64,000 bases of DNA from Lentisphaeria bacterium. GTDB taxonomy: Bacteria; Verrucomicrobiota; Lentisphaeria; Oligosphaerales; Oligosphaeraceae. The notes beneath the pieces are model-generated. The model was not told the DNA's origin. It did no database searches and saw only the letters and a program-made list of their open reading frames with translations. The DNA is taken from NCBI GenBank assembly GCA_024405215.1, contig JAKSPB010000003.1, forward strand, positions 1 through 64,000, given 5' to 3'. A program made the position numbers and the translations under genes. Positions 10,266 to 49,392 of this stretch are shown piece after piece; the stretch's first letter is position 1; every line of letters begins with the position of its first letter.

Positions 10266-11540
10266 ATGAGCAAATTGACCGAAGAGCAAAAGCAGCGCAT
10301 ACAGATGATCGATTACCTGGCCAAACAGCGTGGCATTTCCCGCGCCGACCTGGTCGCAATGCTGGAGCGCACCGTCCGCGAAGCCGCCCGCAAAGCAGTC
10401 CGCAACTATCAGAATGTGGATGTGCAGATTGACGAGAATGTGGCCATTACCTGCGTTGCCAAGTTGACTGTAGTGGAGAGCATCGTGGATCCCTCCCTGG
10501 AGATCGACCTGGGCATGGCGCGCACCCAGTTTCCGGACGCCCAGCTGGGCGACGAAGTAGCCTGGAAGATCGAGGTCCAGGATTTCGGACGAATCGCCTC
10601 CCAGGCGGCCCGCCAGGTTTTCACCATGGGACTTCAGGAAGCGGAGAAACGCCACGTGGTCTCCCAGTTCGAGGGGCAGGAAGGGCAGCTTCTTACTGGC
10701 ACGGTCTCCCGCAAGGACAAGAATGGCATTTGGATCGACTTCGGCAATGCCGAAGGGCTGATGCCTCCGAAGGCTTGCATCCCCGGTGAATCCTACGAAT
10801 TGAACGACCATATCACGGTCATGCTCAAGACGCTGAATCCCGACAAGCCCGGTGCCAGCCTCTATGTGACACGTTCCAGCCCGGAGTTCGTGCGGCGGCT
10901 TTTTGAACGCGAGGTCAGCGAGATTTCCGACGGCACCGTCCAGATCAAAGGCGTTGCCCGTGAGCCCGGCTACCGCACCAAGATCGCCGTTTACAGCGAC
11001 CAGGCGAAAGTGGATCCCGTGGGCGCCTGCGTGGGCCTGCGCGGACAGCGCGTTCGCATGATTGTCAGCGAGCTGGGCGGCGAGAAGGTGGATATCATCA
11101 ATTGGAATCCGGACATCAAGGTTTTCGCCGAGAACGCCTTGAAGCCTGCCAAGCTGGCCAAGATCTACATTGAGGACACAGGCATGGAGAGGATTCTTCA
11201 GGTCCGCGTCACCGAAGACCAGCTCTCCCTTTCCATCGGCAAGAAGGGCCAGAATGCCCGTCTGGCCGCCAAGCTGCTGGGTTGGAAGATCAACATCGAG
11301 AAGATCGCTCCCGAAGAGGTGCCGAAGGAAAACACCATGGAGGAGATGATCGAACAGACCACCATGATGCTTTCCCAGGCTTGCGGCATTGGGCTGGATG
11401 CAGCCCGCGTCCTGGTCTCCAACGGCTATCACTCCATTGAAGGTCTCCGCGAGGCCAGCCTGGAGGAGCTGATGGAGCTGGACGGCATTGATGCAGACAC
11501 GGCGGCGAAGATCGTCGCATCTGTTGCGCCTGAGCAGTAG
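10266..11540 (+). CDS. nusA: Transcription termination/antitermination factor NusA
   Basis: A 424-aa protein. The order is: N-terminal RNA-polymerase-binding domain (1-125), S1 domain (about 133-200, GTVSRKDKNGIWIDFGNAEG), KH1 and KH2 (about 225-345, with GACVGLRGQRVRMIVSELGGEKVDI and LSIGKKGQNARLA), and one C-terminal helix-hairpin-helix-like acidic repeat (about 360-424). NusA controls pausing, termination and antitermination. GGAGG lies seven bases before ATG. It heads an operon with infB and rbfA, as in most bacteria, but the usual rimP gene is absent upstream; rodA is there instead, on the other strand. The leader holds a terminator-like hairpin that might let NusA adjust its own expression. 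Confidence 0.96.
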   Translation: MSKLTEEQKQRIQMIDYLAKQRGISRADLVAMLERTVREAARKAVRNYQNVDVQIDENVAITCVAKLTVVESIVDPSLEIDLGMARTQFPDAQLGDEVAWKIEVQDFGRIASQAARQVFTMGLQEAEKRHVVSQFEGQEGQLLTGTVSRKDKNGIWIDFGNAEGLMPPKACIPGESYELNDHITVMLKTLNPDKPGASLYVTRSSPEFVRRLFEREVSEISDGTVQIKGVAREPGYRTKIAVYSDQAKVDPVGACVGLRGQRVRMIVSELGGEKVDIINWNPDIKVFAENALKPAKLAKIYIEDTGMERILQVRVTEDQLSLSIGKKGQNARLAAKLLGWKINIEKIAPEEVPKENTMEEMIEQTTMMLSQACGIGLDAARVLVSNGYHSIEGLREASLEELMELDGIDADTAAKIVASVAPEQ

Positions 11541-11647
11541 AAGCCTCTGTGCCGGTATCCGGGAGGCGCCGGCCTCCCGGAAATGCCCGAGTCGTTTTTC
11601 CCGGAAGAGATTTTAAGGGTTTATCAAGAATAAGGAAAGGAGAAGAT

Positions 11648-13756
11648 ATGGCTGCCAAAATACGCGTAAACCAATTGGCCCGTGAGCTCGGCATGGAAAG
11701 CAAGGAACTCGTGGAGTTCCTGCAGAAGGAGGGATTTTCTTCCGTGCGCACCCACTCCAGCACCCTGGAGGAGGACGAGGCGGATCTGATCCGCAAGCAG
11801 ATCTACAACTCTCGCAAGGAGGCACAGGAAGCCAAGAAAACCGACGCTGTTCCTGTTGCCGCATCGAAAGACGAGGCGCAGCCTGCGACGCAGCCTGCGA
11901 CGCAGGCGGCTTCCCAGCCTGGCGCAAATGACGAGGACGAAGAATCCGATGGCGAGGAGAACGAAAACGAGGTCCATCTGAAGACTCCCGTCACGGTCCG
12001 CGACTTGGCCACCGCCTTGAAGAAGAAGCCCAACGAGCTGATCATCCAGCTGATGGGGCTGAACATCTTCGCCGCCATCAACCAGGTCCTGGAACTGGAG
12101 ATCGTGGAGAAGATCTGCGAGAAGAACGGCAAGAAGTTCGTCCAGGAGCGCCGTGAAAAGAGCAACCATCCCGTCTTCGAGCGCAAGGCCAGCGCCATTG
12201 CTGCGGCATCCAAGGATGGCCGTCCCCGCAAGAAGGTCGGCCGTCCTCCCGTGGTGGTCTTCATGGGCCATGTCGACCACGGCAAGACAACTTTGCAGGA
12301 CTACATCCGGAAGACCCGCGTCGCCGCAGGCGAAGCCGGCGGCATCACGCAGGCCATCGGCGCTTCCGTCGCCCAATATGGCGACCAGACCATCCCTTTC
12401 CTGGATACGCCCGGACACGCGGCCTTCACCGCCATGCGCGCCCGCGGCGCCAATGCCACCGATGTCGCGGTGCTGGTCATTGCCGCCACCGAAGGCGCCA
12501 TGCCCCAGACTATCGAGGCCATCCATCATGCACAGGCAGCCAAAGTGCCCATCGTGGTCGCCATGACCAAGATTGACCTGCCCGGCTGCGACAAGGACAA
12601 AGTTCTGCGCCAGTTGCAGGAAAACGGCGTCCAACCCGAAGAATGGGGTGGCGACACCGCTGTGATTCCCTGCAGCGGCGTTACCGGCGAAGGCATAGAC
12701 GAGCTTCTGGAACGTATCCTTCTGGAAGCCGAAATGCTGGAACTGAACGCAGATTTGGAAGCGCCTTTCGAGGGCCTGGTCATCGAAGCCCAGATGGAGA
12801 CCGGCATGGGGCCCACCGCCAACATCCTGGTTCGCAACGGCATTCTCCGCCAGGGCGACTGGTTCTCCTGCGGCTCCACCTACGGCAAGGCCCGCGCCCT
12901 GCTGGACACCCATGGGAAGCGCCTGGCGAAGGCCACTGCTTCCACTCCTGTGAAGATCATGGGTTACAACGATGTCCCCGAAGCCGGGGACCGAGTGGTG
13001 TGGCAGCCCGACGAAAAGAGCGCCAAGGCCGTGGCCGACGAAGAGGCCGCCCGCAAGCGCATGGAAGGCGCCGTCACCCGCAAGACCCTGACTTACGATG
13101 AATTCATGCGTATGAGCAACGAGGCCAAGGACAATGCGGAGGTCATTGACTTGAACCTTGTCCTGAAGACGGATGTCCGTGGTTCCCTGGAGGCCATATC
13201 CGAGGCCATCAACGGCATCAAGTCCACCAAGATCAGTGTCAAGATCATTCATTCCGGCGTCGGCGAAGTCACCGAATCCGATGTGATCCTGGCAGCCGCC
13301 AGCAAGGCGGTCATCGTCGGCTTCCACGTCCGCGCCATGCCCGGCGTGCACCACACCGCCAAGCAGAAAGGCGTGGAGATTCGGCTCTACTCCATCATCT
13401 ACGATCTGTTGGATGACCTGGAGAACGTGATGCGCGGTCGTCTCACTCCCGAGACCCGCGAGACCCTCTCCGGCGAAGCGGAGATCATACAGGTCTTCAA
13501 CATCTCCAAGGCCGGAAAGATCTGCGGAAGTCGCGTCATCACGGGGTCCGTCAAGATCAACCAGAAAGCGAAGGTTTTTCGTGCCAAGGAGCTCATCTAC
13601 TCCGGCATGGTGGCTTCCCTCAAGCACTTCAAGGAAGACGTCCGGGAAATCAAGGCCGGCCAGGAATGCGGCATCCGTCTGGACAACTTCGAAGATTTCG
13701 AAGTCGGAGACCGCATCCAGGTCTTCGCCGTCGAGAAGGTCCTTCCTGAACTCTAG
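11648..13756 (+). CDS. infB: Translation initiation factor IF-2
   Basis: A 702-aa GTPase that delivers initiator tRNA. Residues 1-50 are the IF2_N module, then a short, low-complexity Ala/Gln/Glu linker (about 55-110, including the 12-base near repeat CAGCCTGCGACG), a second IF2_N, and the G domain from residue 207. G1 is GHVDHGKT, G3 is DTPGH, and G4 is TKID, an accepted form of NKxD. Domains II, III and IV follow and end at [11 protein letters not shown] at 11648 is preferred because AAGGAAAGGAGAAG stands just before it; the longer frame from 11549 is unlikely. It is 107 bases after nusA and 12 before rbfA. Confidence 0.96.
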
Positions 13757-40685: not shown

Positions 40686-41013
40686 TCTGCTGCTCCTTGA
40701 TGAAAAATGAGAAGGAAATACGAAAAAACGACTCAGAAAGGCTTTTTGCCAACACTTCCATACTATAACCTCCTTGGTGGGGTTTAATGCCTCCTTATGA
40801 ATAGGGAAAAATTCATTGCCAAATAAGAGGTTTCTAGTAGATGTGCTATATTTAACTATTGACATGATAACCTTTGAGATGATGCTTTTTTGTGCATCTG
40901 TTTGTAGCATGCTGCGTCGGAGTTTGTTATTATGTCTTTTTGCCGGTTTTCATTGAACTGGCTCAAAGTATTCAGGTGCTTGTGCCTGCAATTGAAAATA
41001 GGAGAAGAACATA
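40686..41013. other. Divergent promoter region, rhaA and UbiB-like gene
   Basis: An AT-rich 328-base gap. For rhaA, TATAGT near 40761 could be a -10 on the minus strand. For the plus gene, TTGACA at 40860-40865 has no good -10 partner. AGGAG at 41000-41004 is the plus gene's ribosome site. No gene, hairpin or repeat family is seen. Confidence 0.45.
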
Positions 41014-44000
41014 ATGGGTAGAATCAATGGTGTCAACCAAAATCAAATGCTTCGTTCTGATTTGGAGTTGAATCAAGATGACAATTCCAAGAAGGTCATG
41101 TCGACAAGGACTGCTGCCGTTGCAGTGCAGTACACCAAAGACCACATTGACAACATCTCCCATGGGTTCAAGCGCTTCGTTCTCTGCGTCTTTACCCTTG
41201 GCATTAACGAATTGCTACGTTCGAAATATGCCAGGGACTACGAGGCGAACATCACCAAGATGAGTGATGACATTGGAAAAATTCATTCCGCATTGAAGGA
41301 AGAGGTGGGGGAACGTCAACTAAAAGATCTTGACGCAGAAATCAAACACGAAAAGCTATACGGAATAGATCATCGTTTTGAATACAAGGAACACACTACG
41401 GAACTGAAGCTTTCAATGGGAAATGTGACGTTGACACGTCACGTTAATGGCAACGGCACGTTGCGTTTTGCAGATGGTTCAGAGGAAAACATTTCAAATT
41501 GTGCCAATGTCAGGCAAAGGCTTGAAATCGATGTGATGAAAAACGCCAAGATTTTTAGAAAATCTTTGGTAATGCAGATATTAAATGAATATCGCGACAA
41601 AATCACTTCGAATGAAGTGCCAAATTCAGCCAAGGCCAGCCTGGAGGAGCAAGGCACCATCGTCCTCAAAGCCATTCAGGACGTAAAAATGCCTGAAACC
41701 AATGCAACGATTCGTGCAGCCGCCCGCAATCGCCTGAACGAATTGCTTGGAATTCTGTTCAAGGACAACCTCAACCTTTCCGAGGAAACAACTGCCACGT
41801 TGGATCCGAACTTCGGCGTGCAGATGGCTGAGAAACTGCTGAATGGCGAATTGGATTCTCCCGAGACTTTCAAGGAGTTTCTTAACAGAGGCATTTCCGG
41901 CACAAATCTGGGGACGGACGAGGCCACGAAACTTGCCGCGAAACTTGAAAAAGCCCAGGATGAGTACAACAAATACCAGCAGGCGGATTTTCCAACCCGT
42001 TTGAGAATGGAGGCCGAGCCGCCAAATCCCGCATCCCTGGTGAGCTTCGCAGAACAATATGTTGACAGGAAACCCACTGAATCCCTTCCTCAAGGCGAAT
42101 CAAGGGAAGTGCATGATTTCGCTGCAGAAATCATTCTCAGCGAAGATATTACAAAATATGACAACGCGCTTGAACAGGGACATCTTACTGGGGCACGTTT
42201 GGCGAAAATCTTCAAGAAGAACTACGAACTGGTCGGAAGGATGATGGCGAATCGACTGGAAATCAAGGAGAACAAGGAAATATCTGATATGCTTGCAACG
42301 GTCGAGCCAAGCCTTGCCGGCAAGATCTCCGAAATCCTGGACAAGCTGAATGATGATTTCGCATCGGAAAAGAAGAAAAACGAAGAAGAGATTGAAAATA
42401 CAAAGAAGGCTCTTGAGGAAGAGAAGAATTCCGACATTTATTGTAAGGAGGAAAAAGAAAGAAGAATCAATAAAAAAGAGGAAAAGCTCAACAAGTTGCT
42501 TAAAGAAAAAACGACAAAAGAGGCCAAGTCAAGCGCCGAGCAACGTGCCGATTTCGTTATGCATTACCTAAAAAACATCTCGAAAATACAACACGGTATT
42601 GCATATAAGATGGGCGCAAAATTTGTCGAAGACATCAATCCGCAGGAGATGGCTTATCGCTCTGAACAAGTTACAGAAGGCTATGTTATTGTTGAAGAAG
42701 AGAAAGATCAGTGGAATAATGTCAAATACACAATCAAGGCAAGGTCTTCTTCAGACAAGATGGACGTGGCTGCTGCTGAAATGCAGCAGGATGCCAGGAA
42801 AATCGCCTATGAAAGCGATAACCCACAGCGCGCTCAGGAGGAACAAATCCGAATGAAGAAGCGTTTCGATTATTTTGCCGCACAAGAGGAAAAGATCAAC
42901 GAATCCGTAGCGAAGCAATGCGAGCAGATTCAGGAAAAGATAAATAAGCAGCTTGATAAGATTTTCGTGATGCCCGAGGAACGGAAATACACGAATGATG
43001 AATTCGCAAGACTTTCTTTGAGCGAACAGCAAAAGGCCTACGCTGTCAACGATGAAGTCTATCTCATCAAGACAGCCCTGAAGAGCTATTTCAAGGACAT
43101 GTCTGTTCTGGACCAGAGACGAATGATAGCGGCTCAGACTCGTTTCTGTGAGCATAACCCAAATACGACCGCGGGGGCGAAGCTGGGAGCACTTCTCAAG
43201 GGCGCAGGTCCCGTTATGCAGAAAATGTTGCAGGGACTGGACGAGACGGCAATAAAGGACGAGACCTTCAAGGAGGCGTTGGCCGACATGAAGGACGGTC
43301 TTGCGCCGTTGTCTGAAGACACCATCCGCGCCCAGTTCTTCGATATGATCGAACGCAGTAAAAAAGAACATCCTGAGAATCCCATTGTGGGCATAAATGT
43401 CCTGGCGTCTGTCGGACAGGCGTCTGTCGGACAGTCACTGAACTGTGTGTTCACTTTCCGTGACGGGACGACGAAGAACAGCGTGACCAAGATTCTACGT
43501 CCCGATGCCGCCATTACGATGCAACGCGAAGATGTTGTTTTCACCAAGGCAGCGGAAGAGGTGAAGAATGGAATGCCGAAGACATACAGAGGTCGTTTCA
43601 AGAGCATAACCGCCGAACTTGACTTTACGCAGGAGGCCAAAAACGTTCAGCGTGGCCAGGAGGTTTACGGCGGCGCCAAGCAGGGCGTCTACCAGAAGCA
43701 GAAAGTAATTGAAAGATACGGCACTTTTAACAACATCGCTACCGAGCAACTGGTCGATGGCATTGCTCCTACGCAAACATCGCTGTCCATGGAAAACGCC
43801 GGCGACATGACCCTTAAGAAATTCCTCCTGAATGCCTCGACTGTCCTCAAGTCTTCGCGAAAGAAACTTGAACAACCTGCGAAAGAAGGCAACGAGCAAG
43901 CTGAAATGGCAAATGTCGAGCCGCCTTCCTTGGAAGATCTTAGACATCTGGACGAACTTTCAAAGAAATTGCGCAAGACATACTCTTCTCTCACGAGTTT

Positions 44001-44712
44001 GGCGTTCCTATGGGTGAATGAAGGACTCTTCGGCTCAGGTTTTTCCCATGACGACTTGCATACGGCCAATCTGATGCTCAACGGAGACAAACTTGTCATA
44101 ATCGATTATGGCAATTGTATGCAATTGACTTCCGCTGAACGCACAGATGTAATCTCTGCCGTATGTGGCGTGGCTGTCTGCGATGTGGATATCTTCATCA
44201 AGGGATTCCGCAATATGCTTTCACCTGAAAGCGTAGCGCTTTTTGACAGGAATCGCGATGCCATAAAGGAACGTCTGTCAATCATATTCTCCGCGAAGAA
44301 CAAGGGGCTTGACAAGACCGCACAGCGTCTTGATGTGGCCTTGAAGTTGTTTCAGAAGGACTACAAGATAGAAGTGCCCCCTCAGATTCATAACTTCCTG
44401 GAAGGTCAGACCCGTCTGCAGAATGCCATGACCCAGAATCTTCAGTTGATAGAGCAGATCAATGAGCTACGCAACCAGTATGGGACAGCGTTTGGGAATA
44501 AAGAGCTTTCTGAAGATGAAAAGACCATTATTGCGAATTCCGCGGAATTGACAGAAGAGCAAAAAGGCGATAAACTTCCAAGCATGATGAAATGCCTGAC
44601 TGATGTGGTTAAGAACAACATCAATGCCAAACTGCTGAACGCCATTGGCTTGAAAAATGCCAAGAGCGTCTACAACTCCATCAAGGACGAACTCGTGAAA
44701 ATAAAAGGCTGA
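41014..44712 (+). CDS. Giant coiled-coil protein with UbiB/ADCK-like kinase domain
   Basis: 1232 aa. The C-terminal part, from about residue 720, follows the plan of UbiB/ADCK atypical kinases. GPVMQKMLQ (Lys737) stands for the KxGQ motif; VLASVGQASVGQ is the Ala-rich nucleotide loop; VTKILRP the VAIK-like Lys; GFSHDDLHTANLML (His1012 start) the catalytic loop; and IIDYGN (Asp1031) the metal motif. The first 700 residues are mostly helical, with highly charged coiled coils at about 450-510 and 600-660 and one weak hydrophobic segment near residue 50. UbiB proteins act in lipid or quinone biology and are normally 400-550 aa. Base composition is clearly more AT-rich than its neighbours, a sign of transfer. 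AGGAG lies nine bases before ATG. Confidence 0.72.
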   Translation: MGRINGVNQNQMLRSDLELNQDDNSKKVMSTRTAAVAVQYTKDHIDNISHGFKRFVLCVFTLGINELLRSKYARDYEANITKMSDDIGKIHSALKEEVGERQLKDLDAEIKHEKLYGIDHRFEYKEHTTELKLSMGNVTLTRHVNGNGTLRFADGSEENISNCANVRQRLEIDVMKNAKIFRKSLVMQILNEYRDKITSNEVPNSAKASLEEQGTIVLKAIQDVKMPETNATIRAAARNRLNELLGILFKDNLNLSEETTATLDPNFGVQMAEKLLNGELDSPETFKEFLNRGISGTNLGTDEATKLAAKLEKAQDEYNKYQQADFPTRLRMEAEPPNPASLVSFAEQYVDRKPTESLPQGESREVHDFAAEIILSEDITKYDNALEQGHLTGARLAKIFKKNYELVGRMMANRLEIKENKEISDMLATVEPSLAGKISEILDKLNDDFASEKKKNEEEIENTKKALEEEKNSDIYCKEEKERRINKKEEKLNKLLKEKTTKEAKSSAEQRADFVMHYLKNISKIQHGIAYKMGAKFVEDINPQEMAYRSEQVTEGYVIVEEEKDQWNNVKYTIKARSSSDKMDVAAAEMQQDARKIAYESDNPQRAQEEQIRMKKRFDYFAAQEEKINESVAKQCEQIQEKINKQLDKIFVMPEERKYTNDEFARLSLSEQQKAYAVNDEVYLIKTALKSYFKDMSVLDQRRMIAAQTRFCEHNPNTTAGAKLGALLKGAGPVMQKMLQGLDETAIKDETFKEALADMKDGLAPLSEDTIRAQFFDMIERSKKEHPENPIVGINVLASVGQASVGQSLNCVFTFRDGTTKNSVTKILRPDAAITMQREDVVFTKAAEEVKNGMPKTYRGRFKSITAELDFTQEAKNVQRGQEVYGGAKQGVYQKQKVIERYGTFNNIATEQLVDGIAPTQTSLSMENAGDMTLKKFLLNASTVLKSSRKKLEQPAKEGNEQAEMANVEPPSLEDLRHLDELSKKLRKTYSSLTSLAFLWVNEGLFGSGFSHDDLHTANLMLNGDKLVIIDYGNCMQLTSAERTDVISAVCGVAVCDVDIFIKGFRNMLSPESVALFDRNRDAIKERLSIIFSAKNKGLDKTAQRLDVALKLFQKDYKIEVPPQIHNFLEGQTRLQNAMTQNLQLIEQINELRNQYGTAFGNKELSEDEKTIIANSAELTEEQKGDKLPSMMKCLTDVVKNNINAKLLNAIGLKNAKSVYNSIKDELVKIKG

Positions 44713-47949: not shown

Positions 47950-49047
47950 TTATTTTTGTCCAGAGAAGGTGATTTGAGGAATGAACTTGTTTCCCTGTCG
48001 GTAGTCGAGGAGTCCAAGATGATGCAGTCGCCCGACGGCAATCGCGGCATGAAGGTGTTCCCGTGCGCAAAAGTCCTCCAAGTTCTTTCTGGAATACCGC
48101 AGTGTTCTGAGGCGTCCTTCTGTCTTTGGGGGAATCAGGCAATTTGCGGCAAAGTCATCGGCCTCCTTTTCCTTTTTTTCGTTTCGCTGGCCGTATTCCA
48201 CGCCTTCGAGGAAGACGTCGCGTTTGCCGTGGAGGAGGATATGGCCCAATTCATGGAAAAGAGAAAACCAGACGATGTCATATTGCTTGTGGTAATCGGA
48301 GACCTGCACGAGTGGCATGTCTCGAATCCATCGTGTGGCGCCATTTGCCTTGGCGTTGGTCAGGCTTGGAGAAAAGACAAGAATGACTCCCGCCTGGCGG
48401 CAAAGCCCCTGGAGTTCCGGCAGGAAGTTCGTTTTCCCCTGATGGGCGAGTTCGCTCATGGCGGGAAGAACCTCTCTCAGTTTTTCCTGCGAGAAGGGAG
48501 GGATGTCGTGTTCTTCCAGGGCCTTGCGCTCGCCGTGTCGAAGCCAGGCCGAAAGAGAATAGGGATCCGCGACTCCTGAGAGGGAGAGTCTGAACTCAGC
48601 ACCAAGTGCCTGCCGTTGATAATAGACCTCCCAGGCGGAAATCTTTGCCACCCCGAAGAAGGCCAGCAGCCTCTCGATCTTTTCTGTTGTCGTCAGTTTT
48701 TCTTTGGCAGTGATGTATCCTTTTTTCACCATTTCCGTGAAATGGAAATGACTGTACCATTCTGAGGACGCCTTCAACTCCTCCTCCCGCTGGCTGCGTG
48801 CGACGGATTCATCATATCGTACTTGCATATTCAGCCAGAGATGGGCAGGAATGCCGAGGACCTTCTCAAACAGGATGGCCATCTCCGGGGTGACGGAACT
48901 GGTGCCGTTGAGGACGGCATGAATCGTCGGTTCAGGCTTGCCGCAGCGCACGGCAAATGTCTTGATGGGCATGCTCAGTTCTTCCAGCTTTTCTTCCAGC
49001 ATCAACCCCGGATGAAAAGAACCTGCGATTTTCTGCCTTGTTCTCAT
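47950..49047 (-). CDS. higA: HigA-type antitoxin with ImmA/IrrE metallopeptidase domain
   Basis: 365 aa. Residues 10-80 are an XRE-type helix-turn-helix of the HigA kind (LEEKLEELSMPIKTFAVRCG, then PAHLWLNMQVRYDES). Residues about 170-330 are an ImmA/IrrE-like domain with FHELGHILLHGK, the HExxH zinc site. The toxin gene precedes it by three bases, and AGGGG inside the last toxin codons serves as its ribosome site. It should neutralise the toxin and repress the operon; the peptidase part may cut a regulator or itself under stress. Such fused antitoxins are known. Length fits. Confidence 0.88.
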   Translation of the reverse strand: MRTRQKIAGSFHPGLMLEEKLEELSMPIKTFAVRCGKPEPTIHAVLNGTSSVTPEMAILFEKVLGIPAHLWLNMQVRYDESVARSQREEELKASSEWYSHFHFTEMVKKGYITAKEKLTTTEKIERLLAFFGVAKISAWEVYYQRQALGAEFRLSLSGVADPYSLSAWLRHGERKALEEHDIPPFSQEKLREVLPAMSELAHQGKTNFLPELQGLCRQAGVILVFSPSLTNAKANGATRWIRDMPLVQVSDYHKQYDIVWFSLFHELGHILLHGKRDVFLEGVEYGQRNEKKEKEADDFAANCLIPPKTEGRLRTLRYSRKNLEDFCAREHLHAAIAVGRLHHLGLLDYRQGNKFIPQITFSGQK

Positions 49048-49050
49048 GAT

Positions 49051-49392
49051 CTACCCCTTTTTATGATAATCAACAATTTCAACGATGATCGCATCCTGAA
49101 TCAAAGGCCAGATGAACTTTCCCTGGCTATCTGTGGCGATGGGCCTGGTCTTTGGCGTGACAATGAGCCGTGACGGCTGAACCAGGTCGAATGCCCACTG
49201 CCCCTTGCGGTTCTCCGTCAGTTCATGGAAACGCCCTGGCACATGTCGCAAATCTTCAAAGGAATCCGCGTCAATCAGAGTGCCTACTCGACGCAGAAAT
49301 TTATCTGCTTGCTGCTTCCCCAGTTTCTTTTGTGCGTATCCGTCTATCTCTGCGCATTTCTGTAACTCTTTCGTCTTGTAAATGATTTCCAT
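49051..49392 (-). CDS. higB: HigB/RelE-type toxin
   Basis: 113 aa with the RelE/HigB fold pattern: an N-terminal strand and helix (EIIYKTKELQKCAE), then DLRHVPGRFHELTENRKGQW and a final AIIVEIVDYHKKG. HigB toxins cut mRNA on ribosomes. Toxin-first order is usual for higBA. A good promoter lies upstream at 49434-49461. No RNA degradation residues can be assigned by eye. Confidence 0.85.
   Translation of the reverse strand: MEIIYKTKELQKCAEIDGYAQKKLGKQQADKFLRRVGTLIDADSFEDLRHVPGRFHELTENRKGQWAFDLVQPSRLIVTPKTRPIATDSQGKFIWPLIQDAIIVEIVDYHKKG

What the first reader, a model, noticed from the sequence alone, without database searches (positions are those of the whole stretch)
41014..44712. 1232-residue protein joining coiled coils to a UbiB/ADCK-like kinase
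The kinase end keeps the order of UbiB motifs, with KMLQ for KxGQ, a doubled Ala-rich loop, a catalytic HDDLHTAN and DYG. The 700-residue helical front is not a known UbiB part. The gene is more AT-rich than its surroundings, stands alone and has its own strong ribosome site, all signs of transfer. A role as a host- or phage-facing effector is possible but not shown. I know of no described member.
Basis: partly seen in the sequence, partly recalled or inferred. Interest (0 to 1): 0.7.

Follow-up and report, generated by a model that had tools for sequence, protein, structure and literature searches.

The report
Injected ABC1-type kinase of rumen bacteria
This gut bacterium gene encodes a very large protein that ends in a UbiB/COQ8-type kinase, and its relatives in many unrelated rumen bacteria sit beside type III secretion chaperones, so it is probably an enzyme injected into other cells through the bacterial needle, a use of this ancient kinase type for which I found no description.

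Summary
The ORF is real: 41014-44712, 1232 aa, AGGAG ribosome site, 46.6% GC against 56.8% for the rest of the window. The C-terminal half is an ABC1/UbiB-type kinase (Pfam ABC1 E=8e-11; AlphaFold pLDDT 88; COQ8A Z=18.9 over 344 residues). It is not UbiB (53 bits, cut-off 487); the genome has a separate canonical ABC1 gene. It belongs to a large family of mostly 1,100-2,700-residue proteins (117 relatives found) in rumen and gut bacteria of several phyla. [quoted passage not shown] Across phyla 31 of 32 Gram-negative carriers have a T3SS core gene, and 18 relatives have a CesT-type effector chaperone next door. This genome has a T3SS and three other AT-rich candidate effectors beside CesT chaperones. 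Best reading: a T3SS-injected kinase effector with a disordered N-terminal signal, helical front and intact ABC1 active site. Secretion, activity and target are inferred. Against: no chaperone beside the window gene; Lachnospiraceae relatives have no T3SS. Phage, plasmid and defence links were not found. The "doubled Ala-rich loop" is not a family feature.

The parts
41000..41004 (+). ribosome binding site AGGAG, 9 nt before the ATG
   Evidence: sequence printed
41014..44712 (+). CDS of the giant ABC1-kinase protein, 1232 aa
   Evidence: homologues
41014..41160 (+). residues 1-49, predicted disordered; proposed type III secretion signal
   Evidence: pLDDT below 50; role inferred
41161..41217 (+). 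residues 50-68, hydrophobic stretch; proposed membrane-binding part
   Evidence: similar stretch in subfamily relatives; role inferred
41218..43053 (+). residues 69-680, mainly helical front
   Evidence: low confidence; aligned with relatives at 18-27% identity
43171..44463 (+). residues 720-1150, ABC1/UbiB-type kinase domain
43198..43233 (+). KxGQ-type motif, K729 to Q740 (K737-M-L-Q740)
   Evidence: K729, K737, Q740 invariant in 53 sequences
43414..43425 (+). Ala-rich loop equivalent, G801-S804 (GQAS; GAAS in relatives)
43489..43491 (+). K826, ATP-binding lysine position
   Evidence: invariant
44047..44070 (+). catalytic motif HDDLHTAN, residues 1012-1019 (HGDLHAGN in relatives)
   Evidence: H, D, H, N invariant
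44104..44115 (+). metal-binding motif DYGN, residues 1031-1034 (DFGN in relatives)
   Evidence: D, G, N invariant

Best explanation
The gene encodes a type III secretion effector of a gut Victivallales-related bacterium (Verrucomicrobiota). The first 50 or so residues are a flexible secretion signal, and the region after them is probably carried by a CesT-type chaperone encoded elsewhere in the genome. The protein is injected by the genome's own injectisome into a neighbouring cell, most likely a gut eukaryote such as a rumen protist. There a hydrophobic segment and the helical front may place it on a membrane or partner, and the C-terminal ABC1/UbiB-type kinase uses ATP on a host protein or lipid. 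The gene family moves horizontally among rumen bacteria. Shown by computation: kinase fold with intact active site, family membership, a T3SS in this genome, co-occurrence of family and T3SS, chaperones next to relatives. Inferred: secretion of this protein, kinase activity, the target and the host.
For: T3SS in own genome: SctV 899 bits, SctC, SycD/LcrH above cut-offs, CesT genes. All 8 carriers among 59 near genomes are among the 13 with SctC over cut-off; phylum sample 13 of 15 carriers with SctV against 26 of 337 overall. 31 of 32 Gram-negative host genomes across phyla have SctV or SctC over cut-off (SctJ). CesT chaperone next to 18 homologues, including L046 and L047 of the neighbouring clade. 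Other CesT-adjacent AT-rich genes in the same genome. Disordered N-terminus. Active ABC1 fold. Transfer across phyla.
Against: No chaperone gene beside the window gene. Lachnospiraceae relatives have no T3SS core gene over cut-off. Two carriers (G107, the same record as G363, and G310) have no T3SS gene detected. Five T3SS-positive near genomes, among them both of the same genus, lack the gene (partly incomplete MAGs). No secretion data; association counts are inflated by relatedness.
Confidence: 0.74

Rival explanations
1. A cytoplasmic ABC1 kinase with an added helical scaffold that acts inside the bacterium, for example on envelope lipids or isoprenoids, and happens to be common in gut bacteria that also have a T3SS.
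For: ABC1 proteins are normally housekeeping proteins; Lachnospiraceae relatives exist without T3SS, next to GNAT-like genes.
Against: Restriction to T3SS carriers in Gram-negatives, adjacent CesT chaperones, patchy distribution and transfer, separate canonical ABC1 gene.
Confidence: 0.17
2. It is a T3SS substrate, but the kinase domain works as something other than a kinase (ATPase, nucleotide transferase, or ATP-bound scaffold), and the helical front is the active part.
For: COQ8 is described in the literature as possibly an ATPase (abstracts); the front is large and unlike known folds in a weak model.
Against: All catalytic residues, not only ATP-binding ones, are invariant over a very diverse family. 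The front is less conserved (18-27%) than the kinase part (26-43%).
Confidence: 0.25
3. A phage- or plasmid-facing defence protein carried on a mobile element.
For: AT-rich, patchily distributed gene; weak local hits to Abi_C and TCAD9 below their cut-offs.
Against: No PADLOC hit, no relative in viral, phage or plasmid collections; the two flanking genes are a rhamnose isomerase and a laminin-G-domain protein.
Confidence: 0.03

Closest known systems
ABC1/UbiB/ADCK (COQ8A) atypical kinases, Pfam PF03109, TIGR01982 UbiB
   Same: Kinase fold (COQ8A Z 18.9, 344 residues), KxGQ lysine and glutamine, Ala-rich loop position, HxD...N and DFG-type motifs in order
   Different: 53 bits against UbiB cut-off 487; giant front; canonical ABC1 proteins score 36-43 bits in the profile of this family against about 395 or more for members; linked to T3SS chaperones
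Type III secretion effectors with CesT-class chaperones
   Same: T3SS-restricted in Gram-negatives, CesT gene beside many relatives, AT-rich, disordered N-terminus, patchy distribution
   Different: No described effector with an ABC1 kinase was found in the paper library; unusually large; chaperone not adjacent here
Effector kinases of Legionella (pan-kinome survey, PMC9758233)
   Same: Injected protein-kinase-like effectors of a bacterium that meets protists
   Different: That survey lists the Legionella ABC1 protein lpg2905 as a non-effector kinase; other kinase families, other delivery

Membership tests
ABC1/UbiB-type kinase superfamily (PF03109) | Pfam model above curated cut-off | tested here: met
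   42 bits, cut-off 22.9
ABC1/UbiB-type kinase superfamily (PF03109) | COQ8-like fold including the N-terminal KxGQ helices | tested here: met
   Z 18.9, rmsd 3.9, 344 aligned, COQ8A 258-644
ABC1/UbiB-type kinase superfamily (PF03109) | KxGQ, Ala-rich loop, HxD...N, DFG-type motifs | tested here: met
   K737/Q740 kept but the G is L; A803, H1012, D1014, N1019, D1031, G1033 kept
ABC1/UbiB-type kinase superfamily (PF03109) | ATP binding or phosphate transfer | not testable with these tools
   needs an assay
UbiB equivalog (TIGR01982) | score above curated cut-off | tested here: not met
   53.3 against 487.55 bits
T3SS effector | genome encodes an injectisome | tested here: met
   SctV, SctC, SycD/LcrH above cut-offs
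T3SS effector | gene family restricted to T3SS carriers | tested here: inconclusive
   31 of 32 Gram-negative hosts, 13 of 15 in phylum sample, but Lachnospiraceae relatives lack it
T3SS effector | dedicated chaperone beside the gene (common, not obligatory) | tested here: inconclusive
   CesT beside 18 relatives, none beside the window gene
T3SS effector | T3SS-dependent secretion or translocation | not testable with these tools
   needs secretome of wild type and sct deletion
Anti-phage defence protein | match to a PADLOC model | tested here: not met
   no family up to E=1

The most novel reading that the evidence does not exclude
A large, horizontally moving family of type III effectors of gut and rumen bacteria has turned the ancient COQ8/UbiB kinase into a weapon or signal against gut eukaryotes such as rumen ciliates; it would be the first ABC1-type effector kinase, used in Lachnospiraceae with another delivery route or for another purpose.
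Probability: 0.45. Interest if true: 0.78.

Novelty: new variant of a known kind. Interest (0 to 1): 0.63.

Why it matters
T3SS genes in the rumen have been reported to correlate with methane yield, and most could not be assigned to a bacterial group (PMC5549432). This work links a testable effector family to Victivallales, Kiritimatiellae, Succinivibrio, Desulfovibrio and other gut bacteria, and gives culturable homologues (Succinivibrio dextrinosolvens DSM 3072, ACV-10). ABC1 kinases are known as housekeeping proteins of quinone and lipid metabolism; an injected version would be a new biochemical class of effector and might help to find the elusive substrates of ABC1 kinases.

Tried and rejected
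Canonical UbiB: rejected (cut-off missed; separate canonical gene present). Defence or phage protein: no PADLOC, viral, phage or plasmid relatives. Duplicated Ala-rich loop: absent from relatives. PDB by sequence with the single protein: no hit; with the profile only weak ABC1 hits. Fold of the front: low confidence (pLDDT 64) and no PDB match at E<=0.001; one Foldseek run on a weak model, so nothing is claimed about that fold. An empty site in the same genus: G001 has an orthologue of the gene on the 3' side of the window gene (57%) without the kinase gene, but synteny ends there, so no clean insertion site could be shown. The first genome-contig scan with the single sequence found nothing; the alignment was needed. 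Upstream sequences of candidate effectors were looked at by eye without finding a common motif. Canonical ABC1 proteins could not be kept in the tree (too few aligned columns), so it is unrooted. No paper on an ABC1 effector was found.

Full report
Observation. Window 41014-44712 (+) holds one open frame of 1232 codons with an AGGAG ribosome site. Its GC is 46.6%, against 56.8% for the rest of the window. The neighbours are an L-rhamnose isomerase (PF06134) and a protein with a laminin-G-like domain, both on the other strand.

Kinase. The protein matches Pfam ABC1 above the curated score, best stretch 987-1057, while the UbiB equivalog model gives 53 bits against a cut-off of 487. The genome has a separate canonical ABC1 gene in an open frame of 556 codons. 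An AlphaFold model of residues 593-1232 from a 53-sequence alignment has mean pLDDT 88 and pTM 0.85. Its best PDB matches are COQ8A and mycobacterial ABC1 proteins: Z 18.9 with 344 residues aligned, covering window residues 719-1207; RIO kinases come next at 12.6. Across the 53 sequences K729, K737, Q740, G801, A803, K826, E839, E868, E874, H1012, D1014, H1016, N1019, D1031, G1033 and N1034 are invariant. So the enzyme is probably active.

Family. Among 59 near genomes, eight of the same taxonomic family including this one hold long homologues, 1204-1676 residues where complete. A profile scan of the genome-contig collection found 117 encoded relatives, of which 80 were fetched. Complete members run from 901 (Vibrio pectenicida) to 2740 residues, with the kinase towards the C-terminus. 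Hosts are nearly all rumen or gut bacteria: Victivallales, Kiritimatiellae, Desulfovibrio, Mailhella, Succinivibrio, Succinatimonas, Sutterella and many Lachnospiraceae. In the profile of this family the members listed score about 395-890 bits and canonical ABC1 proteins 36-43. In the unrooted tree the window protein groups with Kiritimatiellae (support 0.94), then with a Burkholderiaceae and an Aeromonadales MAG (0.98), then with Victivallales and Mailhella (0.96), which points to transfer between phyla. Most hosts are MAGs and some may be mis-binned, but Succinivibrio dextrinosolvens DSM 3072 and ACV-10, Succinatimonas hippei YIT 12066 and V. pectenicida LMG 19642 are named strains.

Link to type III secretion. 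This genome encodes SctV, SctC and a SycD/LcrH chaperone above curated cut-offs and CesT-family chaperones at five places. The SctC model is above cut-off in 13 of 59 near genomes, and all eight carriers of the kinase family are among them; in genera g5 and g8 both traits vary together. In a 337-genome sample of the phylum, 15 carry the family and 26 carry SctV above cut-off; 13 have both (Fisher p=1e-14; relatedness makes this value too small). Of 32 Gram-negative host genomes across phyla, 24 have SctV above cut-off and seven more have SctC above cut-off, six of these with SctJ too. The one left (G107, the same record as G363) has CesT genes beside its homologue (L117). In the phylum sample G310 also lacks a detected T3SS gene. 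The 18 Gram-positive hosts have none above the SctV cut-off, and the eight of them tested have none for SctC or SctJ.

Chaperones. CesT-like genes (PF05932) lie directly beside 18 homologues, about a dozen of them non-redundant, including L046 and L047 in the clade next to the window protein; none were found in the 30 Gram-positive loci. In L046 the order is chaperone, window-type protein, second family member. In this genome three more CesT genes stand next to long AT-rich genes of unknown function (C43 near an SctR-like gene, C18, C19; GC 0.43-0.48), matching the window gene's composition. The window gene has no such neighbour, so its own chaperone would be encoded elsewhere.

Front half. 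The model of residues 1-615 is weak (pLDDT 64). The first 49 residues are predicted disordered, as expected for a secretion signal, and the rest is mainly helical. A hydrophobic stretch at 50-68 is matched in relatives of the same subfamily.

Mechanism. The best reading is an injected kinase effector. The steps of secretion, membrane placement, catalysis and host target are inferred. The habitat points to gut eukaryotes; a paper on rumen protozoa notes the suggestion that secretion systems including T3SS help Gammaproteobacteria resist predation (PMC8941083). A T3SS in S. dextrinosolvens, and a correlation of rumen T3SS genes with methane yield, are published (PMC5549432). I found no paper that describes an ABC1-type effector; the Legionella kinome survey treats its ABC1 protein as a non-effector (PMC9758233). 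The paper library is open-access only, so a description elsewhere cannot be excluded.

Limits. The link to secretion is by association. Lachnospiraceae relatives show that the same kinase architecture occurs where no T3SS is found; they are flanked by GNAT-like genes, and their role is open.

Noticed in passing
Lachnospiraceae loci among L066-L121, e.g. L116:2201-3931 and 10809-11753: Giant ABC1-kinase proteins of Lachnospiraceae, which lack T3SS, are flanked on one or both sides by GNAT-like genes of about 280-350 aa (18 loci); the delivery route or role is unknown.
   Followed up: partly
L023:1805-4621: A 938-aa protein directly downstream of the G006 homologue carries GQGDRHHNNY...IDNDMSF, resembling PI3/4-kinase or HipA-like active sites by eye; no Pfam match. 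A second candidate effector kinase.
   Followed up: partly
L136:3836-8558, L137:6052-8535, L138:8743-12382 (contigs C43, C18, C19 of the own genome): Three CesT chaperone genes each beside a long AT-rich gene (569 to about 1170 aa) without Pfam match: further candidate T3SS effectors of this genome.
   Followed up: partly
L052:3-6182: In a Kiritimatiellae MAG two more long proteins (at least 1054, and 968 aa) lie in a row upstream of the window-type kinase protein, which looks like an effector gene cluster.
   Followed up: no
window 47950-49392 (-): HTH plus M78 peptidase protein (365 aa) next to a 113-aa ORF, an arrangement like a HigBA-type toxin-antitoxin pair.
   Followed up: no
L101:6819-9524: The only clearly marine relative among those fetched, 901 aa, is on chromosome 2 of Vibrio pectenicida LMG 19642, whose genome also has SctV above cut-off; no T3SS gene was recognised beside it.
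   Followed up: partly
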